From Treponemataceae bacterium (GTDB lineage: Bacteria; Spirochaetota; Spirochaetia; Treponematales; Treponemataceae), in the NCBI GenBank assembly GCA_024402455.1, contig JAKSTS010000067.1:1-9561 (forward strand): a stretch of 9,561 nt of DNA, read 5' to 3'. Each line of letters starts with the position of its first letter. Position 1 is the stretch's first letter. Shown in pieces: positions 68 through 9,561 of the stretch. Both the position numbers and the translations under genes were made by a program. A model generated the notes under the pieces. The model searched no databases. It was given only the letters and a program-made list of their open reading frames with translations, and was not told where the DNA came from.

Positions 68-1303
68 TCAGTTTTTGTTCTGCAAAAAATCTTTTATATG
101 AACAATTTTTATTCCGTCTTCGTTGCCGCAAACAGAAGAATCCATTGTTACGACATATTTCGGATAGTTATCTTTTATTGCTTTTAAGTTTGCAAGTTCG
201 CGGTCTGAATTTTCCGGCAAAGTTCGGCAGATCTGGACATACAGCTTTTCATTCTGTTTTACTGCAACAAAATCAATTTCTTTTTCAGCATATTTACCAA
301 TATAAATTGAATAACCACGGCGGCGAAGTTCAAGATAAACAAGATTTTCAAGTACAGAAGCAACTGCTTTGGGAGAATACCCTAACTGACTGTATTTAAA
401 ACTTATGTCCGAAAGATAATATTTTTCCTGAGTTTTTAAAACTTCCTTTCCCTGAATATCATAGCGGTTACAGCGGTAGATTATGAAAGCTTCTTCAAGC
501 CATGTAAGGTAATTGTAGATAGTTTCTATGGCAATTGAACGATGCTGACTTTTAAAAAAGTCAAAGATTGTTTTTGCACTAAAGTTTTTCCCAAGATTTT
601 CAAGAATGAACCGGACAACCCGGTCGAACATTTCAATGTTCGAAATATTATGACGTTTGGAAATATCACGAGTTACAACAGTAGAATAAATGCCGTCTAT
701 TATCTGGTAATTTTCTTCCTGAGTATGATTTGTTTTTGCAATAAAAGGGAAGCCTCCGGATTTTAAATACAAATCAAAATAAGCTTCGTCTGATTCATTT
801 TGCAAAGTTGAAACAAATGTTTTTTTAAATTCAATGAACTCAGTAAAAGAGAGTGTATAAACAGGAATTAAAACAAACCGACCAGTAAGATAAGTTGAAA
901 TCTCAGAAGAAAGTAGTTTTGAATTGGAACCAGTAACATAAATGTCTACATTCTGGTTTTCAAAAAGAGAATTAATGCATTTTTCCCAAGTTTGAACTTC
1001 CTGAACTTCATCCAGCAGCAAATATATTTTTTGTGCCTTATTACAGGATTTTATGGCAGAAAGCAAATCTTTGTGCATGGCTTCTGCATCAAAACCTTCT
1101 TTAAATTCCATTGAAGAATAAAGCCGTTCAATTATGTTTTGCGGATTTACTCCAAGAGAGAGAAGTTCTTTTTTATAAGTTCTAAGTATTGTTGATTTTC
1201 CACATCGACGAACACCGCAAAGAATTTTTATGATATTTTCGTCTTTGAATTTTTTAAGATTTTCAATGAATACTGTTCTGTAAAGTTCTGTTTCTTCTTT
1301 CAT
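68..1303 (-). CDS. AAA_14/DUF4143 family ATPase
   Basis: The product is a 411-residue cytosolic P-loop ATPase of the widespread AAA_14 plus DUF4143 type. Visible motifs are Walker A GVRRCGKST (residues 30-38), Walker B LLLDEVQ (95-101, D98/E99) and a sensor-like TGSNS (124-128). A middle part around 205-280 looks like a winged helix. The C-terminal part has E319, EIDF (342-345) and VQI (356-358), spaced like a degenerate PD-(D/E)xK nuclease fold. Length is normal for the family. The ATG at 1303 is the first good start, but no clear Shine-Dalgarno sequence precedes it. It is a single-gene unit with no recognisable partner, and a 9-bp inverted repeat covers its promoter. The cellular role of this family is poorly defined; members are often multicopy and sit in accessory regions. 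The family call is confident and no substrate can be given. Confidence 0.9.
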   Translation of the reverse strand: MKEETELYRTVFIENLKKFKDENIIKILCGVRRCGKSTILRTYKKELLSLGVNPQNIIERLYSSMEFKEGFDAEAMHKDLLSAIKSCNKAQKIYLLLDEVQEVQTWEKCINSLFENQNVDIYVTGSNSKLLSSEISTYLTGRFVLIPVYTLSFTEFIEFKKTFVSTLQNESDEAYFDLYLKSGGFPFIAKTNHTQEENYQIIDGIYSTVVTRDISKRHNISNIEMFDRVVRFILENLGKNFSAKTIFDFFKSQHRSIAIETIYNYLTWLEEAFIIYRCNRYDIQGKEVLKTQEKYYLSDISFKYSQLGYSPKAVASVLENLVYLELRRRGYSIYIGKYAEKEIDFVAVKQNEKLYVQICRTLPENSDRELANLKAIKDNYPKYVVTMDSSVCGNEDGIKIVHIKDFLQNKN

Positions 1304-2563: not shown

Positions 2564-2598
2564 AAAGCAGTTTTACAGTCTTTTAAGGCTGTTTTTGT
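2564..2598 (-). terminator. Possible terminator after the methyltransferase gene
   Basis: An 8-bp hairpin with a T-G pair lies at ACAG...CTGT (2576-2593), overlapping the stop codon. A wider alternative pairs AAAAA-CAG near 2565-2572 with CTGTTTTT near 2590-2597, which on the minus strand ends in six T. The structure is imperfect and coding sequence is involved, so the call is tentative. Confidence 0.35.
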
Positions 2599-3557
2599 TT
2601 ATTGCCTTTGTGCAGCCATGTAAGTTCGTGCTTATTATAATTAAGGTGAATTACTTTGCTATCTGGAATTTCATTGAATGCACGGATTATGTTCCAGTTT
2701 GTTTCACCTTGCATTTTTATGGTACAGATCATGTTTGGAACTTTCGGCCTTGAAGTCCACATTTTGACCCATTCCAAAAGCCGCTCCGGATAGCAGATAA
2801 CGTCCGAAAACACCCAGTCAACAGGTTCAATGTCTTCGCATTTCAGTGTAAAAGCGTCGTGGGCAAGAAATTTTACTTTTGGATCTGCCATAAGCTTGTC
2901 AACAAGCGGGCTTCTGTCAACAGCAAAAACTGAACAGCCAAGTTGAACAAGCACGTATGTCCAGCCTCCGGGGCATGCACCTGCTTCAAAGCAATGATGG
3001 CCTTTTTGTGGAAAATCGCCAAAAAAAGTCTGAAAATGCACCAGAGATTCTTGAATTTTCAGATAGGCTCTGCTTGGCGGGTTTTCATGGTCTTCTACAA
3101 ACTGAATGCGTCCGCATGGCAAAAAGCTTGAAGTTTTTGCAGAGGCAATTATTTCGTGTTCATTTATAAGAGTCCATGCGCCCATTGGAGTCTGCGGCAC
3201 GCTGTATGGAAATGTCCGTGGTTTAAGGTTTATATATGGAAGTTTTTCTTGAATTAGTGCGGCACGTCTGAAAAGTGTAAATTGATAAGGTGCCCAGTTA
3301 CGCTGAATCTGCTTTAATGAAGCTGCTGCTTCTGAAACGGAATTAAAAGAAACTGTAAAAGGTTCAAAATAAATTGTACTGCACCAGTAAGGATGAATGT
3401 TTTTTGACGGTGCATTTTTCCAGTAAATCAAATCACCGTAAAGTACTAAATCGCTGTTGCTTGCGCCAAAGCATCCGCAGAGTTCTTCAATGAGCCATGA
3501 ACATTTTTCTTCGAATGCAAGAAATGCACAGCCTTGCAGCGGCTTGGTTACAGGCAT
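2583..3557 (-). CDS. RlmM-like 2'-O-ribose rRNA methyltransferase
   Basis: The 324-residue protein is a SAM-dependent methyltransferase of the FtsJ/RrmJ fold, and its motif wording is closest to RlmM, which methylates the 2'-hydroxyl of a cytidine in 23S rRNA. The SAM-binding motif is EAGACPGGWTYVLVQLG (191-207), followed by AVDRSP (212-217). The K-D-K-E catalytic tetrad of this class can be placed at K167 (in SRAYLKIQE), D252 (in VFSDV), K281 (in CTIKMQ) and E311 (in KHELTW). Residues 1-150 form a separate N-terminal part, expected to bind RNA. The protein is about 40 residues shorter than Escherichia coli RlmM (about 366). The ATG at 3557 lies inside the end of the PilZ gene (10-bp overlap), so the two are co-transcribed and probably translationally coupled. 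Methyltransferase class is confident; the exact rRNA target is inferred. Confidence 0.82.
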   Translation of the reverse strand: MPVTKPLQGCAFLAFEEKCSWLIEELCGCFGASNSDLVLYGDLIYWKNAPSKNIHPYWCSTIYFEPFTVSFNSVSEAAASLKQIQRNWAPYQFTLFRRAALIQEKLPYINLKPRTFPYSVPQTPMGAWTLINEHEIIASAKTSSFLPCGRIQFVEDHENPPSRAYLKIQESLVHFQTFFGDFPQKGHHCFEAGACPGGWTYVLVQLGCSVFAVDRSPLVDKLMADPKVKFLAHDAFTLKCEDIEPVDWVFSDVICYPERLLEWVKMWTSRPKVPNMICTIKMQGETNWNIIRAFNEIPDSKVIHLNYNKHELTWLHKGNKQKQP

Positions 3558-3922
3558 AGTTCTTTTAAGAGGAGTTCGTCAGAATCGAGGGAGGCCTGGT
3601 GAAGGACATTAAGATAGCTTGAGAGGCGGCGTGTGTCTGAAGCGCCTATGATTGAAAAACCCGCTTCATTGTTGTCTTCTGCTTCTTCTGTCCAGACTGG
3701 TCTGACTGTAAGAGAAAATGGTTTTAACCCTTGCCTGCATGAAGGCTGAATATTGAGTTCACATTCATTTTCTTCGTTAATTTCTACAGGAACTGGAAAC
3801 TTTACACGGCAACCTGTTTTGCTTATATCAAGCAGCATGCCTGGCAAAACGCACAGCTCTGGTGCGTCTATTCTTGCATAGTCTTTGTAACGCCCGTCGT
3901 TCCTTTTTTCTTTCAAATTCAC
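3548..3922 (-). CDS. PilZ-domain protein (likely c-di-GMP receptor)
   Basis: A small cytosolic protein with the two PilZ signatures that bind cyclic di-GMP: RxxxR (RNDGR) near the N-terminus and DxSxxG (DISKTG) about 25 residues later. A beta-rich stretch follows with VRPVW and GFSIIG, typical of the PilZ barrel. The start is uncertain. There is no ATG before the RxxxR motif. A GTG at 3922 gives 124 residues (R7, R11, D32, S34, G37). A TTG at 4003 gives 151 residues but would put the 3962-4007 inverted repeat inside the coding region. I prefer GTG; neither has a good ribosome binding site. The gene overlaps the downstream methyltransferase by 10 bp and is divergent from an HD-GYP gene, which fits c-di-GMP signalling. 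Confidence 0.8.
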   Translation of the reverse strand: MNLKEKRNDGRYKDYARIDAPELCVLPGMLLDISKTGCRVKFPVPVEINEENECELNIQPSCRQGLKPFSLTVRPVWTEEAEDNNEAGFSIIGASDTRRLSSYLNVLHQASLDSDELLLKELCL

Positions 3923-3961
3923 GTAATTAGACTGTCTTTTTTTTTGATTAATGTCAACACG

Positions 3962-4007
3962 AAAATTGCCGATAAAATTGCAATTTTGCAAAGTTATCGG
4001 CAATTTT
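3962..4007. repeat. Perfect 14-bp inverted repeat between the PilZ and HD-GYP genes
   Basis: AAAATTGCCGATAA (3962-3975) and TTATCGGCAATTTT (3994-4007) are exact reverse complements with an 18-nt gap. The gap itself holds two copies of the palindrome TTGCAA (3978-3983 and 3986-3991). It lies upstream of both divergent genes, with a perfect TTGACA on the minus strand at 3957-3952 next to it. It could be an operator for a dimeric regulator, a 5'-leader hairpin, or a weak two-way terminator; the symmetry is direct observation and the role is inference. Confidence 0.75.
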
Positions 4008-4156: not shown

Positions 4157-5401
4157 ATGTCAAATGCTGAAGTTGATGCAATAGAAAAACTTTTTTTGGA
4201 TAGCCATACAGAAAAAATGAATATGCTTGTTGTAAGAGTATATTCCGTAACCTGTCTGGTTCCTGCCCTTATTTTATGCGGCTGTTTGCTGGGACTTTAT
4301 AATTATTCTCCGTTAAAAGCTTTGGCTTCTCTTTTGCTGTCTTTAATTCTGCTTTTTGCGTTGAAGTTTTATTACAAAAAAAAGCCAAAATCGCAGTATT
4401 TTAAATATTTTGCAGCGATTACAATTCAAAGCATTGTTTTTTCACTTTCTTTAGATCCAAATTTGAAAATTACAGTTTCTTATTCTGTAATGCCGCTTAT
4501 TACTTTTCTTTATTTTGACCCGAAGTTTTCGTTTTGGGCATGCATTATCAGTTTTATAAGTGCATTTACTGCCTGGTTTTTGATAAGTGACGAAACGATT
4601 GAATTTTTCTCTCTTGGCGTAACAAAAAAGTTTTATTTAATTTCTTCTGGTTCTGCACTGCTGCTTGAATTTGGTGCAATGACAACCCTGTTGTGCATTT
4701 CTTCGATGCAGACGTATAGATTTAAAAAGTCGCTTATTGCGCATAACATAAAAAGGCGCGACATGCAGACAAGAGTTTTATACAGTTTTGCAGATTTGAT
4801 TGAACTGCGCGACGGTACGACAGGCGAACATGTAAAACGCACAAGTGCAATTGTGTCGCACATGGTTACTTACATGATTCAGAATAAAATTTACACAGAC
4901 ATCATTTCGCTTTCAGATTTGCATTATGTTATACTTGCAGCACCTCTGCACGACATTGGAAAAATGAACGTGCCGGATTACATTCTTTCAAAACCCGGAA
5001 AATTAACGGACGAAGAATATGAAATAATAAAAAAACATCCTGTTGAAAGCGAACGCATCATAAAACGCACGCTGAAGAATGTAGAAGATGACAAATTTGT
5101 AAACATTGCTTCTGATGTCTGTCTTTATCATCATGAAAAATGGGACGGAACTGGTTATCCTGAACAGCTGAAAGGTGAAGAAATTCCGATTTCTGCAAGA
5201 ATTATGGCAATTGCAGATGTTTTTGATGCATTATGCAGCAAAAGACCGTATAAAAAGGCTTTTTCTATTGATGAGGCTTTTAAAATCTTAAAAGAATCAA
5301 GGGGCAGTCATTTTGATCCAACGTTGGTTGATATTATGTTTGAACTGCGGTCTTATCTTGAAGTAATCTATGAATTAGATGATGTGGTTGAAGAAATCTA
5401 A
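4157..5401 (+). CDS. Membrane-anchored HD-GYP protein (likely c-di-GMP phosphodiesterase)
   Basis: The 414-residue protein has about six membrane segments in residues 27-180 (for example 27-47, 53-70, 82-98, 124-143, 158-180) and a cytosolic HD-GYP domain from about 205 to 400. HD-GYP enzymes hydrolyse cyclic di-GMP to pGpG or GMP using a metal centre. The signature residues are present: H225 (GEHVKRTS), H265-D266 followed by GK (LHDIGKMNVPD), H294, H325-H326, D330 with GTGYP (331-335, the GYP motif), and D354 (ADVFDAL). The membrane region is an undefined sensor rather than a named domain. The ATG at 4157 has only a modest AAGAG site 5 nt upstream. It is divergent from the PilZ gene, a plausible partner that would sense the same nucleotide. 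All catalytic residues look intact, so activity is likely. Confidence 0.92.
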   Translation: MSNAEVDAIEKLFLDSHTEKMNMLVVRVYSVTCLVPALILCGCLLGLYNYSPLKALASLLLSLILLFALKFYYKKKPKSQYFKYFAAITIQSIVFSLSLDPNLKITVSYSVMPLITFLYFDPKFSFWACIISFISAFTAWFLISDETIEFFSLGVTKKFYLISSGSALLLEFGAMTTLLCISSMQTYRFKKSLIAHNIKRRDMQTRVLYSFADLIELRDGTTGEHVKRTSAIVSHMVTYMIQNKIYTDIISLSDLHYVILAAPLHDIGKMNVPDYILSKPGKLTDEEYEIIKKHPVESERIIKRTLKNVEDDKFVNIASDVCLYHHEKWDGTGYPEQLKGEEIPISARIMAIADVFDALCSKRPYKKAFSIDEAFKILKESRGSHFDPTLVDIMFELRSYLEVIYELDDVVEEI

Positions 5402-5448: not shown

Positions 5449-5565
5449 TATAATCCAAAACACGGCTCTGTGCGCACGTCGCTGCAATTTTCTTTTGGCG
5501 GAATTCTGTGCAGGCACTTAAAAACATCTGTCCAGTGAATGAAATTAAGCGAGAGGTTTGTTTAA
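5449..5565 (+). promoter_or_regulatory. Promoter and structured leader of the NusG-II/Gx operon
   Basis: A perfect TATAAT (5449-5454) predicts a start near 5461 and a leader of about 105 nt. The leader is more GC-rich than its surroundings and has several complementary pieces: CTGCA (5482-5486) with TGCAG (5509-5513), AATT with AATT inside it, the palindrome GTGCGCAC (5470-5477), and GTGC with GCAC (5514-5517). No FMN-riboswitch core was recognised. Ribosome binding site GAGAGG (5551-5556) lies 9 nt before the TTG start. The -35 is poor, so the promoter is tentative. Confidence 0.4.
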
Positions 5566-5919
5566 TTGAAAAAGTTTAATCCAGGTTTTAAAATTCTAGA
5601 CATTTTTATATTTGCGGCAATTCTTGCTGCAGGCATTTTCCTTACAAAAAATTCACTTACAAAAAAAGGAAGCACTGTAAGGGTTCTTGCAAATGGCAAT
5701 GAATATGAATTTCAAATGAAAAATGGCATTTACGAAGTAGAAGGTGTCATTGGAACTACAACTTTTCAAATAGAAGACGGCAAGGTGCATATAATTGATT
5801 CTCCATGTCCGAATAAAACGTGTGTTGAACAAGGCTGGACAAGTCCTTTAATCTGTCTTCCAAATAAAGTTATTATTACCATTGCAAATTATGGAGATTT
5901 TGATGCTGTCTCAGAATAA
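5566..5919 (+). CDS. NusG domain II-containing membrane-anchored protein
   Basis: A 117-residue protein with one N-terminal membrane anchor (about 10-28) and an exported NusG-II domain. The family hallmark is SPCPNKTCVEQGW (79-91) followed by ICLPNKVIITI (96-106), giving three conserved cysteines C81, C86 and C97. It is not the NusG transcription factor; it only shares a fold with its second domain. Such proteins recur beside Gx-transporter, RNF and flavinylation genes in anaerobes, but their biochemical role is not established. The start is TTG: an in-frame stop codon (5563-5565) directly precedes it and no ATG occurs until residue 51, so TTG is forced. A GAGAGG site lies 9 nt upstream. The stop overlaps the start of the next gene, indicating an operon. 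Confidence 0.88.
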   Translation: MKKFNPGFKILDIFIFAAILAAGIFLTKNSLTKKGSTVRVLANGNEYEFQMKNGIYEVEGVIGTTTFQIEDGKVHIIDSPCPNKTCVEQGWTSPLICLPNKVIITIANYGDFDAVSE

Positions 5920-6898
5920 AAAACGTATTGCCTATCTGTCTGCGCTTACACTGCTGTTTTCATATGCTGAATTTCTGCTGCCGCGGTTTCTGCCGTTTTT
6001 CAGGCTTGGTCTTGGAAATGTAGTAATTCTTTTGTCTTTTTCACTTGATCCGTTAAGTTTTATCCTTCTTACTGCAATAAAAGCTGTTGCCAGCTGCTTA
6101 ATGTCTGGAACTTTATTTTCTCCGTTCTTTTTGATTTCTTTTGTTCAGTCTGTGGTAAGCGGCTTGTTTATGTATGGAATTGTTAAACTGTTTCACGGCA
6201 AATTGATTAGCGTTTATGGCATTTCAATGCTTGGTTCTGCCTGCAGCGCAGTAATTCAAATTTTGCTTAGCAGTCTTTATCTTGGCGAAGGAACTAATGC
6301 GCTGCTTGGACCGATGATTTTATTCAGTTTGTTTAGTGGAATTGTTACTGCCTGTCTCAGTCAGATTCTTCATATACCGGAAGATGTTCCTAAATTAATA
6401 AAGCAGAATAACGTTGAAACAAGCGGTGAAAATGAAAAAAAGCGGAAAACAAAAACTGTCTGCATGATTTTGGCAATTTTAATTGCTTCTGTAGTTATAA
6501 TGATTATAAAAAATCTTTATGTGCTGCTTTGCGCTTTAGCATTATCTTTTATTGCCCAGATTTTATCAAAGCGAAAAATTAAAATTTTGCCGCATATTTC
6601 TATATGGCTTTTTGTTATTATTTCAACTTTGATGATGCCGCAGGGAAAAATTCTTTATTCTTTGGCTGGCTGGAACATTACAAACGGCGCTTTATTTACT
6701 GGCATTGAAAAGGCACTGAAGCTTTCTGCGTTGTCTGCTTTAAGCCAGTGCCTTGCAAGTATTCGCCCGACCGGAAACGGAATTTTATCTTTATCGTTAG
6801 CTTATTTTGGTGGTCTTTGTAAAATTTTAAACGGTTCAGAAGGCAATCTTGTTAAAAGAACACGAACCGCATTAAGTACACAGACTATTTATGAATGA
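5903..6898 (+). CDS. Gx transporter family membrane protein with C-terminal EcfT-like domain
   Basis: A 331-residue polytopic membrane protein in two parts joined by a charged linker (about 165-184). Residues 1-160 match the Gx-transporter family (RLGLGNVVILLSF, 34-46), long mislabelled heptaprenyl diphosphate synthase component I and similar to ECF-transporter substrate-binding S subunits. Residues 185-331 form further membrane segments and end with ALFTGIEKALKLSALSALSQ (263-282), which resembles the coupling helices of the ECF T subunit. No ATPase subunit is encoded nearby. ATG at 5903 is chosen because GGAG (5893-5896) lies 6 nt upstream and it is inside the end of the NusG-II gene (17-bp overlap). 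TTG 5882 and ATG 5891 are alternatives. Context with ApbE and an FMN protein suggests support of flavin-based electron transfer. The substrate is unknown. Confidence 0.82.
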   Translation: MLSQNKKRIAYLSALTLLFSYAEFLLPRFLPFFRLGLGNVVILLSFSLDPLSFILLTAIKAVASCLMSGTLFSPFFLISFVQSVVSGLFMYGIVKLFHGKLISVYGISMLGSACSAVIQILLSSLYLGEGTNALLGPMILFSLFSGIVTACLSQILHIPEDVPKLIKQNNVETSGENEKKRKTKTVCMILAILIASVVIMIIKNLYVLLCALALSFIAQILSKRKIKILPHISIWLFVIISTLMMPQGKILYSLAGWNITNGALFTGIEKALKLSALSALSQCLASIRPTGNGILSLSLAYFGGLCKILNGSEGNLVKRTRTALSTQTIYE

Positions 6899-7889
6899 TA
6901 TTTACAGAATTAAAATCTGCAAGGAGATTTAATTCTCCCTGAAGTCCTTCTGTGTAATATAAATCCTGATTTTCTGTAAAGATAATCATCTCAAAATCCG
7001 GGTGCTGCTTCCAGTAAGAAGCGGCATTTTCAAGCCCCATTACAAACATTGTTGTGCTGAGTGCATCTGCGTATAAGCCAGATTCTGTTATTATTGTTAC
7101 TCCTGCAATTCCGTTGTTAACCGGCATTCCGGTTTTTCCGTCAAAAATGTGAATGTAGTTATTGCCGTCGTCTGCCGTAAAAAAACGTTCGTAACCGCCG
7201 CTTGTAATAACAGCTTTGTCAGCAATTTTGATTACTGCTGCTGCTTTGCCTGTCCATGGACTTTTTATGCCGATATTCCATTCTGTTCCGTCGGGTTTTT
7301 TGCCAAGAGCCTGAATGTTTCCGCCTAAATCTAAAAGAGCTGAATTAATTCCATTGTTCCGCAGAAGTTTAATGGCTTCATCTCCTGTGTAGCCTTTTCC
7401 TACGGCTCCAAAATCTAATGCCATTCCCGGTTCTAAGTTTATTAAACTGCCATTGATTTGAATTTTTGAATAGTCTGTCAGTGCAAGCAGTTCTTTTATC
7501 TGGTCTTTAGAAGGAACTTTGTAATCTCCTGTCGTAAAGCCCCATGCAGATGTAACAGGGTACAGTGCAGGATTAAAAACGCCGTCTGTCTGTTTTGCAA
7601 AATTCAGGCTGTATTTTGTCAATGTCAAAGTATCATTGCTTACAGAAATATTTTCACCGTGGTTTAACCTGTAAACATCAGAAGCTGCATTTGTTGTTGA
7701 TATGTTCTGTTCAATTTGCAGGATAAGCTCTTTTGTTTTTTCAAGTGCCATATCTGATTTTTTTCCGTATGCCTGAATTGTCATAAAAGTATCCATGGCA
7801 TTTAAGGAAGCTGAAGATTTTTTTTCGTTGCATGAAGCAAATAAAAGCGTAATGAAAACAACTGCAGAAAGTAATATGAATTTTTTCAT
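6885..7889 (-). CDS. apbE: ApbE-type FAD:protein FMN transferase, lipoprotein
   Basis: The enzyme moves FMN from FAD to a threonine or serine hydroxyl of exported target proteins, forming covalent phosphoester flavins; it needs Mg2+. The 334-residue length is normal. Residues 1-20 form a lipoprotein signal with LLFASC and lipidated C20, placing it outside the inner membrane. Family motifs are MDTFMTIQAYG (32-42), PVTSAWGF (111-118), DFGAVGKGYTGDEA (159-172), LDLGGNIQALG (187-196), VITSGGYERFF (227-237) and YADALSTTMFVMG (273-285), with metal ligands D275 and T279. Treponema pallidum Ftp is a comparable lipoprotein that can also hydrolyse FAD. The stop is TAG, and the gene overlaps the facing Gx gene by 14 bp. 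It is divergent from a reductase with two SGAT motifs, its likely target. No clear ribosome binding site was found. Confidence 0.95.
   Translation of the reverse strand: MKKFILLSAVVFITLLFASCNEKKSSASLNAMDTFMTIQAYGKKSDMALEKTKELILQIEQNISTTNAASDVYRLNHGENISVSNDTLTLTKYSLNFAKQTDGVFNPALYPVTSAWGFTTGDYKVPSKDQIKELLALTDYSKIQINGSLINLEPGMALDFGAVGKGYTGDEAIKLLRNNGINSALLDLGGNIQALGKKPDGTEWNIGIKSPWTGKAAAVIKIADKAVITSGGYERFFTADDGNNYIHIFDGKTGMPVNNGIAGVTIITESGLYADALSTTMFVMGLENAASYWKQHPDFEMIIFTENQDLYYTEGLQGELNLLADFNSVNIIHK
6906..6936. repeat. Hairpin at the convergent gene ends
   Basis: AGAATTAAAATCT (6906-6918) pairs with AGATTTAATTCT (6925-6936), leaving one bulged A and a 6-nt loop (12 bp). It lies inside the last codons of apbE, just past the stop of the Gx gene. 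It has no T-run on either side, so it is at best a weak or atypical two-way terminator. Confidence 0.4.
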
Positions 7890-7961
7890 GGCGTGAGCAT
7901 ATCATAAAAAATTAAAAAAATCTCCATAGAGAAAAGGAATGTATTGTTAGTTATCAAACCA

Positions 7962-7994
7962 TTTTATGAAAGAAAAATGAATAAATTCATAAAA
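7962..7994. promoter_or_regulatory. Inverted repeat between apbE and the reductase (possible operator)
   Basis: TTTTATGAA (7962-7970) and TTCATAAAA (7986-7994) are a perfect 9-bp inverted repeat with a 15-nt gap. A nested ATGAAT-AA-ATTCAT palindrome (7977-7990) shares the right arm, so three ATGAA half-sites lie within 30 bp. It sits in the 206-nt divergent gap, where one regulator could control both genes. The motif does not match the FNR or CRP consensus well. AT-rich context makes this tentative. Confidence 0.4.
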
Positions 7995-8051
7995 AATGCA
8001 CGTTTTCTGTTGAATATTAAAGATTTTGTACTAACTATTTTTATGATAAAA

Positions 8052-8088
8052 TGATATACTCATTATGAATTTTTTATTAAATGAAGGA
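8052..8088 (+). promoter_or_regulatory. Extended -10 promoter and ribosome binding site of the reductase gene
   Basis: TGATATACT (8052-8060) is an extended -10 element (TGn plus TATACT). No good -35 is present at the usual spacing, which extended -10 promoters tolerate. Predicted start is near 8067, giving a leader of about 30 nt. GAAGGA (8083-8088) lies 7 nt before the ATG at 8096. Confidence 0.5.
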
Positions 8089-8095
8089 TTTACTT

Positions 8096-9561
8096 ATGGT
8101 AAAATCAAAGTTATTTAAGGTTATTGCAGGCATTTCTGTTACTGCAATGCTTTGGGTAATGGTTTCTTGTGGTGGTGCTAAATATAACGACGGCACATAC
8201 ACAGGAACTGCTGCTGGTCGTAATGGAGACGTTGTTGTTTCTGTTACAGTTGCTAATGGTAAAATAGCTTCTGTTGAAGTAATTCAGCATGAAGAAACAG
8301 CTGGTCTTAGCGATGCTGCAATTACAGAAGTACCTGCTTCAATCGTAAAGAAAAACTCTACAAAAGTAGATGCTGTTTCTGGTGCTACTGTTACATCTAA
8401 GGCTATTATGGCTGCTGCAGATGCTGCCCTTGCTAATGCTGGTGGAAAATCTGGTTCTGCAAAAGCTGAAAAAGCACGCAAGAACGTTGCTATTTCATAC
8501 ACAGCTGGTACATACGAAGGTACAGCAATGGGTATGAATGGTCCTGTAACATTGGAAGTAACATTCTCTAGCGATGCAATTACAGACATTAAAGTAAAAT
8601 CATCTAAAGAAACAGCACATGTTGGTGATCCTGCTTTCCCAATCATGTTCAAAGATGCTATTGAAGCTAACGGTTCTGGAATCGATGCTGTTTCTGGTGC
8701 TACATTCACTTCTTTGGCTGTAAAGAATGCTTTGACAGACGCTGCTAAAAAAGCAAACGCTTCTAAGATTGAAGAATTCAAGAAAAACAAGGTTGTTCAT
8801 TCAGCTCAGAAACCAATTGAAGAAACATATGATGTTGTAATCGTTGGTGCTGGTGGTGCTGGTATCGCTGCTGCTGCTCAGTCAGTTCAGAACGGCTACT
8901 CTGTTCTTATTATTGAGAAAAATGCCGAAGTCGGTGGTAACACTGTAGTTTCTGGCGGTCAGTTCCAGTCTGTAATGCCTTACCTTGTTTGGGAAAAAGC
9001 TAATCCAAATGCAGAAGAAGGTGTTTGTCCTCAGGATGGAAAATCATACAAGAAAGTTAAGATGGCTAACGGTAACATCGCTGTTCTTAAGACAATTCTT
9101 AACTGGAGCGAGAAGCCGTTTGACCCGGCAGGTGCTTCTGAATGGTTCGAAGCCGGCGATATCGAAAGACTTTCAACCCATGGTGTTCATCAGGAATACC
9201 TGCCAGTTCTGAAAGAACTTAAACAGGAAATCAAAGATTACCTCGCTTGGGCAGAACCAAAACTTAACAAAGGCCTTAACGAGGGTGCTCTTACATTGTT
9301 CTCAACAGTTAATCTCCATATTTTCCAGACATACTACGGCGGACTTCGTCCAAACGCAGATTTCTCATCATGGATTTATGGTGACTACGACCTCGTATGC
9401 CAGTTCATTAAAGACGGTCAGGAACTTAAAGACTGGCTCGTTGATCAGGGTTCAGCTTTTGACAACGCTACACAGCCGACAATCGTTGGTGCTTTGTGGC
9501 AGCGCGAAAACGACTACCTCAAGAGCGGTCCTACAGCTTTCCAGTGGGGAACATACTTCCA
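8096..9561 (+). CDS. Lipoprotein flavocytochrome-c-like FAD reductase with two FMN-binding domains (3' end outside window)
   Basis: Only the first 488 codons are present. Residues 1-25 form a lipoprotein signal ending VMVSC, with C25 lipidated. Two FMN_bind domains follow in tandem, about 30-115 and 135-220. They carry DAVSGATVTS (92-101) and DAVSGATFTS (197-206); T98 and T203 are the expected covalent FMN sites made by ApbE. A FAD-dependent fumarate-reductase-type domain starts near 245 with YDVVIVGAGGAGIAAAA (GxGGAG at 251-256) and GGN (280-282). Family members reduce fumarate, urocanate, acrylate-type or other unsaturated acids outside the cytoplasm. The catalytic C-terminal part is beyond the window, so the substrate cannot be named. 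No haem-binding CxxCH is seen, so FMN would feed the FAD. Codons favour GGT, GCT, TTC, AAC and AAG more than in neighbouring genes, suggesting high expression. Divergent from apbE. Confidence 0.93.
   Translation, partial: MVKSKLFKVIAGISVTAMLWVMVSCGGAKYNDGTYTGTAAGRNGDVVVSVTVANGKIASVEVIQHEETAGLSDAAITEVPASIVKKNSTKVDAVSGATVTSKAIMAAADAALANAGGKSGSAKAEKARKNVAISYTAGTYEGTAMGMNGPVTLEVTFSSDAITDIKVKSSKETAHVGDPAFPIMFKDAIEANGSGIDAVSGATFTSLAVKNALTDAAKKANASKIEEFKKNKVVHSAQKPIEETYDVVIVGAGGAGIAAAAQSVQNGYSVLIIEKNAEVGGNTVVSGGQFQSVMPYLVWEKANPNAEEGVCPQDGKSYKKVKMANGNIAVLKTILNWSEKPFDPAGASEWFEAGDIERLSTHGVHQEYLPVLKELKQEIKDYLAWAEPKLNKGLNEGALTLFSTVNLHIFQTYYGGLRPNADFSSWIYGDYDLVCQFIKDGQELKDWLVDQGSAFDNATQPTIVGALWQRENDYLKSGPTAFQWGTYF

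What the first reader, a model, noticed from the sequence alone, without database searches (positions are those of the whole stretch)
5449..9561. Compact extracytosolic flavinylation and electron-transfer locus
A NusG-II domain protein, a Gx-transporter protein, a lipoprotein ApbE and a lipoprotein reductase with two FMN attachment motifs sit side by side with almost no spare DNA. Families are clear from motifs. It is established that ApbE flavinylates SGAT-type threonines and that these gene types co-occur in anaerobes. The inference is one functional unit: membrane redox partner, then covalent FMN, then FAD reductase for an organic acceptor. The roles of the NusG-II and Gx proteins in it are essentially undescribed.
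Basis: partly seen in the sequence, partly recalled or inferred. Interest (0 to 1): 0.7.

Follow-up and report, generated by a model that had tools for sequence, protein, structure and literature searches.

The report
Flavin export and attachment gene cluster
A spirochaete carries, side by side, a probable one-chain exporter for the vitamin B2 cofactor FAD, the enzyme that glues its flavin half onto outside proteins, and one such protein, an outward-facing respiratory reductase; the parts are of known kinds, but the exporter is a short, fused form that may also feed this process in the syphilis bacterium.

Summary
The four genes are real and conserved, but on two strands: NusG_II and Gx point right (17 nt overlap), ApbE points left, and the reductase diverges from ApbE and is cut by the window edge. 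All seven close relatives found, all spirochaetes, keep the block. In 118 genomes of their family NusG_II and Gx co-occur (both 102, neither 9); 20 have both beside ApbE. In 20 more distant loci the reductase is not a neighbour. Gx has the fold of EetB, published as a FAD-binding, FAD-exporting ECF S subunit in Listeria, fused to a shortened ECF-T membrane domain (profile match 94.9%; ten controls at most 0.7%). So NusG_II-Gx is most likely the FAD supply for ApbE, not a membrane redox partner; the role of NusG_II stays open. Electrons probably come from Rnf, found in 7 of 7 relatives. The Treponema pallidum genome has the same fusion, a candidate FAD source for its periplasmic ApbE (Ftp). EetB-ECF-T fusions are in print; I found no description of the shortened T domain or of the fusion in spirochaetes. 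New variant of a known kind; no transport, flavinylation or substrate is shown.

The parts
5566..5919 (+). NusG_II (DUF1312-like) protein: one N-terminal membrane helix, then a presumably extracytosolic beta domain with three invariant cysteines C81, C86, C97 (numbered from the TTG)
5903..6898 (+). Gx protein, 331 aa from ATG 5903: EetB-type ECF S domain fused to a shortened ECF-T-like domain; candidate FAD exporter
   Evidence: Pfam PF07456 E 2.7e-17; PF02361 CbiQ E 5e-4, below its cut-off; model and profile comparisons
5903..6385 (+). S domain (residues 8-168 of the 5882 frame)
6446..6895 (+). shortened T domain (residues 189-338): resembles the membrane half of ECF-T
6885..7889 (-). ApbE, FAD:protein FMN transferase, with a lipoprotein-like signal ending in FASC
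   Evidence: Pfam E 2.8e-82; PDB 7esa E 2.4e-51 and T. pallidum Ftp 4ifu E 2e-40; hydrophobic N-terminus
7890..8080 (.). divergent intergenic region between ApbE and the reductase
   Evidence: ORF coordinates; promoter-like sites not above shuffles; no Rfam match in the window
8081..9561 (+). lipoprotein-like reductase, 5' part only: two FMN_bind domains and the start of the FAD domain; 843 aa in L003 and L007, 854 aa in L005
   Evidence: Pfam; full-length ORFs L003:12054-14585, L007:12462-14993, L005:12191-14755; start at 8096 more likely
8369..8389 (+). flavinylation motif 1, DAVSGAT, T98 counted from 8096
   Evidence: T in 112 of 112 aligned
8684..8704 (+). flavinylation motif 2, DAVSGAT, T203 counted from 8096
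   Evidence: T in 110 and S in 2 of 112 aligned

Best explanation
The block is a flavin-supply and flavin-attachment module with one of its clients. Step 1 (inferred): FAD made in the cytosol is carried out by Gx, an EetB-type S domain fused to a shortened ECF-T domain, perhaps with ECF ATPases borrowed from other ECF cassettes of the genome; the NusG_II protein, anchored beside it with a cysteine-bearing domain outside, assists loading, hand-over or redox state. Step 2 (family knowledge): lipoprotein ApbE splits the exported FAD and attaches FMN to the two threonines of the lipoprotein reductase, and to other clients such as RnfG. Step 3 (inferred): electrons from Rnf pass through FMN1 and FMN2 to the FAD domain, which reduces a carboxylate-bearing enoate outside the cytoplasmic membrane. 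Shown here: the genes, their conservation, fold and profile matches to S and T subunits, the motifs, conserved catalytic residues in the reductase's near relatives. Not shown: any transport, flavinylation, electron transfer or substrate.
Confidence: 0.7

Rival explanations
1. One reading: NusG_II and Gx are a membrane redox pair that passes electrons to the flavinylated reductase.
For: Adjacent to the reductase in 7 of 7 close relatives; NusG_II has three invariant cysteines, which could carry a redox centre.
Against: Gx resembles S and T transporter subunits; the reductase is absent from the held flanks of 20 of 20 more distant Gx loci; Rnf offers an electron source in 7 of 7 relatives.
Confidence: 0.08
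2. Gx is a flavin importer, or a transporter of another compound, not a FAD exporter; ApbE is fed in another way.
For: ECF S components generally import (general knowledge); the fold cannot show direction or substrate; the Pfam name is heptaprenyl diphosphate synthase component I; 6 of 112 genomes have ApbE without Gx; another flavin exporter is known in some Gram-negatives.
Against: Strict directionality of EetB was reported in Listeria (PMC9973259, abstract and section 10); the ApbE neighbourhood (Gx beside ApbE in 22 of 118 genomes) fits export.
Confidence: 0.16
3. The genes are mere neighbours: housekeeping ApbE supply beside a reductase with no closer functional tie.
For: Three transcription directions; in most genomes of the family the genes lie apart; the reductase is a neighbour only in the close relatives.
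Against: The reductase carries two ApbE target motifs, the block keeps together in L005 where flanks differ, and presence of Gx, NusG_II and ApbE is correlated.
Confidence: 0.06

Closest known systems
EetB-FmnA ECF flavin exporter of Listeria monocytogenes (PMC9973259)
   Same: PF07456 S domain, an ECF-T-like partner, neighbouring ApbE; fused EetB-ECF-T chains are already reported there
   Different: here one chain in a diderm spirochaete, with a short T domain (median 157 residues, linker included, against 233 in the 34 ECF-T compared) and no ECF ATPase among the nine main window proteins; I could not compare with the Listeria sequences themselves
FLEET extracellular electron transfer locus of Gram-positive bacteria
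   Same: EetB-type protein, ApbE (FmnB) and a flavinylated lipoprotein near each other; NusG_II probably corresponds to EetA (recalled)
   Different: no Ndh2, demethylmenaquinone genes or PplA among the nine main window proteins; the client is a reductase with its own active site
Ftp (TP0796), the ApbE of Treponema pallidum
   Same: same family, E 2e-40; its genome (G027, ApbE identical to 4ifu over 340 residues) has a 374 aa Gx fusion and a NusG_II
   Different: there the three genes lie far apart
Urocanate reductase UrdA and fumarate reductases FccA, FrdA
   Same: FAD_binding_2 enzymes, FMN_bind in UrdA and the Listeria FrdA (PMC8238504); catalytic Arg, His, Arg kept
   Different: two FMN domains, roughly 100 residues inserted after the SGG motif (my reading of the Pfam positions), and, by alignment, Met at the FccA H365 / UrdA Y373 position and Gly at the UrdA D388 position in 112 of 112: substrate unlikely to be urocanate or plain fumarate
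DUF1312 / NusG domain II structures 4esn, 4obi, 3ld7
   Different: Lin0431 (2kpp) lacks two of the three cysteines in the alignment

Membership tests
EetB-type ECF S component (FAD exporter) | PF07456 match over cut-off | tested here: met
   63.6 bits against 30
EetB-type ECF S component (FAD exporter) | ECF S-component fold | tested here: met
EetB-type ECF S component (FAD exporter) | binds FAD and exports it | not testable with these tools
   needs protein
ECF-T subunit | membrane domain homologous to ECF-T | tested here: met
   hhalign 94.9%, E 4.4e-8, columns 18-123 of 256; Pfam CbiQ only below its cut-off
ECF-T subunit | coupling helices with Ala-Arg-Gly type motifs | tested here: inconclusive
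   ARG in 0 of 62 T domains but also in only 11 of 34 ECF-T; LRG 9 of 62 and 15 of 34; R[GS] 30 of 62 and 33 of 34; the alignment stops before that half of ECF-T
ApbE FAD:protein FMN transferase | family match and signal peptide with lipobox-like cysteine | tested here: met
   276.7 bits against 25.6; FASC by reading, hydrophobic N-terminus
ApbE FAD:protein FMN transferase | FMN transfer activity | not testable with these tools
   needs protein
Flavinylated fumarate-reductase-like enzyme | FMN_bind with DxxSGAT and a FAD_binding_2 domain | tested here: met
   FMN_bind and motifs in the window; full FAD domain in L003 E 3.3e-51
Flavinylated fumarate-reductase-like enzyme | catalytic Arg/His/Arg | tested here: met
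   112 of 112 aligned near relatives; in the window's own copy they lie beyond the edge
Urocanate reductase | imidazole-binding Asp388 and Tyr373 | tested here: not met
   Gly and Met in 112 of 112, by alignment
FLEET locus | Ndh2 and PplA encoded in the cluster | tested here: not met
   none among the nine main window proteins; the flanks of the relatives were not scanned for them

The most novel reading that the evidence does not exclude
Gx is a minimal one-chain flavin exporter: an S domain with half a T domain that has lost the usual ATPase-coupling part and moves FAD outward without an ECF ATPase of its own. It would be the general FAD supply for periplasmic flavinylation in its spirochaete family, including Treponema pallidum, where the source of FAD for Ftp is not named in the papers I saw.
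Probability: 0.2. Interest if true: 0.75.

Novelty: new variant of a known kind. Interest (0 to 1): 0.5.

Why it matters
Periplasmic flavinylation needs FAD outside the cytoplasm. For spirochaetes I saw no exporter named in the papers opened here. If Gx is that exporter, it explains how ApbE is fed in a family that includes the syphilis agent, and it offers a reduced ECF transporter for asking how ECF export works and whether it needs ATPases. It also turns a vaguely annotated pair (Gx transporter, NusG domain II) into a testable system.

Tried and rejected
Rejected: one operon of four genes (strands differ). Rejected: urocanate reductase label. Rejected: Gx as a prenyl synthase part from its Pfam name, since the fold matches are transporters. 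Led nowhere: PDB sequence searches with Gx; Rfam scan of the window, 0 matches; promoter and terminator scan, 8 and 4 found against 11.3 and 3.1 in shuffles; ECF ATPase model TIGR04520, which gave 26-79 matches per genome and reached its cut-off in 0 of 8 genomes, so I could not assign ATPases to Gx; plain Foldseek with the Gx model, best E 0.13, its first hit an S component. A first, shallow profile comparison of the T domain gave 40.8%, and 35.9% and 1.8% for two subsets; the deep one is. A remnant of the GGDEF/EAL-type gene of L003 was sought in the window and not found. Literature: Treponema with EetB, one paper, seen in the listing only; NusG with EetA and flavin, none; EetA with PF07009, none; Treponema with flavinylation and ECF, two papers, read by passages; 'Gx transporter family', one unrelated listing. 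No description of this fusion in spirochaetes came up, but supplementary tables could not be read, and Data Set S1 of PMC9973259 may list such genomes.

Dropped rows: the nine 'main' window proteins are my choice out of 21 ORFs. For the reductase alignment 111 of the 120 listed homologues were used (780-900 aa), plus L003; the 120 are the best of 2,502, so the invariance is that of near relatives. For the Gx model 24 sequences were chosen by me from the window, the 120 listed homologues and three of the loci. For one search two second-fragment Gx rows (of 112) and one second-fragment ApbE row (of 118) were not retyped. The 20 loci (19 genomes) were chosen because Gx and NusG_II lie close together, so they do not sample the family; three genomes of the 29 with adjacent genes (G045, G061, G064) were not fetched there.

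Full report
What is there. I took nine main proteins from the 21 ORFs of the window. In the right half: a NusG_II protein (5566-5919 +), the Gx protein (start most likely ATG 5903, end 6898, +), ApbE (6885-7889, minus strand) and a reductase (ATG 8081 or 8096, +, cut by the window edge). Families are firm. NusG_II and Gx overlap by 17 nt and are probably co-transcribed; Gx and ApbE converge with a 14 nt overlap; ApbE and the reductase diverge from a gap of 191 or 206 nt. So the locus is compact as claimed, but it runs in three directions.

Whose it is. The seven genome relatives found with Gx (83-87% identity) are MAGs titled Treponema, Spirochaetaceae, Spirochaetales or Spirochaetes; one title names water buffalo rumen. 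No whole genome is held for the window itself. All seven keep NusG_II, Gx, ApbE and reductase in the same order and strands (L002 ends inside the reductase). In L005 the neighbours on both sides differ from those in L003 and L007, so the block is a unit beyond general gene order.

What its relatives do. In Listeria, EetB (PF07456) binds FAD, resembles ECF S components and, with the ECF-T protein FmnA and the ECF ATPases, is required for flavinylation of PplA in the absence of added FAD; eetB colocalises with eetA in 3,328 and with apbE in 2,169 genomes of that survey, and EetB-ECF-T fusions are named (PMC9973259: abstract, sections 7, 9-12, 21, 22 and passages read). That study finds eetB most abundant in Firmicutes and in a subset of other phyla. 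I did not see spirochaetes discussed in the parts read; its data set was not readable here.

Spread. The family of G003 includes T. pallidum (below), so it is Treponemataceae by inference. In a sample of 118 of its genomes, PF07456 is found in 107, NusG_II in 104 and ApbE in 112. From those coordinates: Gx and NusG_II both in 102, only Gx in 5, only NusG_II in 2, neither in 9; within 3 kb of each other in 29; with ApbE too in 20. ApbE without Gx: 6; Gx without ApbE: 1. Longest Gx frame 300 aa or more (fusion length) in 82 of 107, 260 or less in 24, one of 281. Among the 14 control genomes both families occur in the same two, Thermotoga maritima and Lactococcus lactis. In a sample of 149 genomes of the phylum 70 have PF07456; 12 of these show frames of 300 aa or more, and 10 of the 12 belong to the first sample (my count), so the fusion looks like a trait of this family. 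Neither kinship nor genome completeness is corrected. In 20 loci chosen for close Gx and NusG_II, 13 have ApbE adjacent, convergent with Gx in 12 of 13; none shows the reductase in the held flanks.

Treponema pallidum. G027 (one contig of 1,139,633 bases) has an ApbE identical over 340 residues to PDB 4ifu, which PMC12052999 lists as TP0796 of T. pallidum (passages). It encodes a Gx fusion of 374 aa (L141:1461-2585) and a NusG_II, far apart. A public record names a 371 aa Gx transporter family protein of T. pallidum (P0243). Papers on its flavin biology describe riboflavin import by an ABC system and the periplasmic Ftp (PMC10194888, PMC7512555, passages), and one says that FAD export in Shewanella was by an unidentified mechanism (PMC4767422, passage); I saw no exporter named for T. 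pallidum. Gx is a candidate.

ApbE and its clients. Of the 112 genomes with ApbE, 107 have one match, four have two and one has three. The seven relatives hold 4-5 FMN_bind matches each: this reductase (two domains) in 7 of 7, a protein of about 600 aa frame in 5, a small one of 136 aa frame in 3, and RnfG in 7. Those read carry the SGAT or SGAS motif. RnfD is present in 7 of 7, with a second, weaker PF03116 protein in each as well. Rnf is therefore a plausible electron source; a published survey notes for characterised reductases of this kind that electrons come from components encoded elsewhere (PMC8238504, passages).

Reductase. L003 and L007 have 843 aa and L005 854 aa, with two FMN_bind domains and a FAD_binding_2 domain (E 3.3e-51 in L003) that carries roughly 100 extra residues after the SGG motif. 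By alignment to UrdA and FccA the catalytic Arg, His and Arg are at 639, 779 and 819 of L003 and invariant in 112 of 112 aligned sequences; the position of FccA H365 / UrdA Y373 is Met and that of UrdA D388 is Gly in 112 of 112; both flavinylated positions are Thr (Ser in 2 at the second), and 103 of the 111 homologues match the motif pattern at least twice. So it should reduce a carboxylate-bearing enoate, unlikely urocanate or plain fumarate. The family is broad: 2,502 proteins at E 0.001 or better, with names from Treponema, Solobacterium and Clostridiales among the listed 120; one source calls a relative fumarate reductase, another urocanate reductase. The window's own catalytic residues lie beyond its edge.

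Verdict. Best reading: a FAD export and attachment module with one respiratory client. New variant of a known kind.

Noticed in passing
window 4157-5401 +: Membrane-anchored HD-GYP protein (HD_5 E 6.7e-38), with a PilZ protein (3548-4003) and a CheX protein (1988-2449) on the other strand: a small c-di-GMP and chemotaxis neighbourhood kept in L001, L003, L006 and L007.
   Followed up: partly
window 2583-3557 -: FtsJ-type methyltransferase resembling RlmM (88.1 bits, far below the equivalog cut-off of 176), 81-82% identical in four relatives.
   Followed up: no
window 68-1303 -: AAA_14/DUF4143 ATPase with no match in the seven relatives' loci, followed by about 680 bases without a listed ORF of 60 aa; in L003 a GGDEF/EAL-type protein lies next to CheX instead, of which no trace was found here.
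   Followed up: partly
L009, L011, L029, L033: S and T halves of Gx as separate adjacent genes; the separate T proteins have no Pfam match and some carry an extra C-terminal hydrophobic segment.
   Followed up: partly
L087, L088, L090, L092, L093 and L091, L095, L096: Further ECF cassettes in the relatives: a double ATPase chain next to a full ECF-T, and a chain with two ATPase domains and a T domain fused (frames of about 720-800 aa).
   Followed up: no
L003:14660-15262 and L007:15146-15748: A TetR-type regulator (scanned in L003; the same ORF in L007) lies convergent just downstream of the reductase; L005 has a different membrane protein there, MATE-like by reading.
   Followed up: no
P0195, P0198, P0210, P0231: Reductase relatives of 1,414-1,457 aa, long enough for a second oxidoreductase domain.
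   Followed up: no
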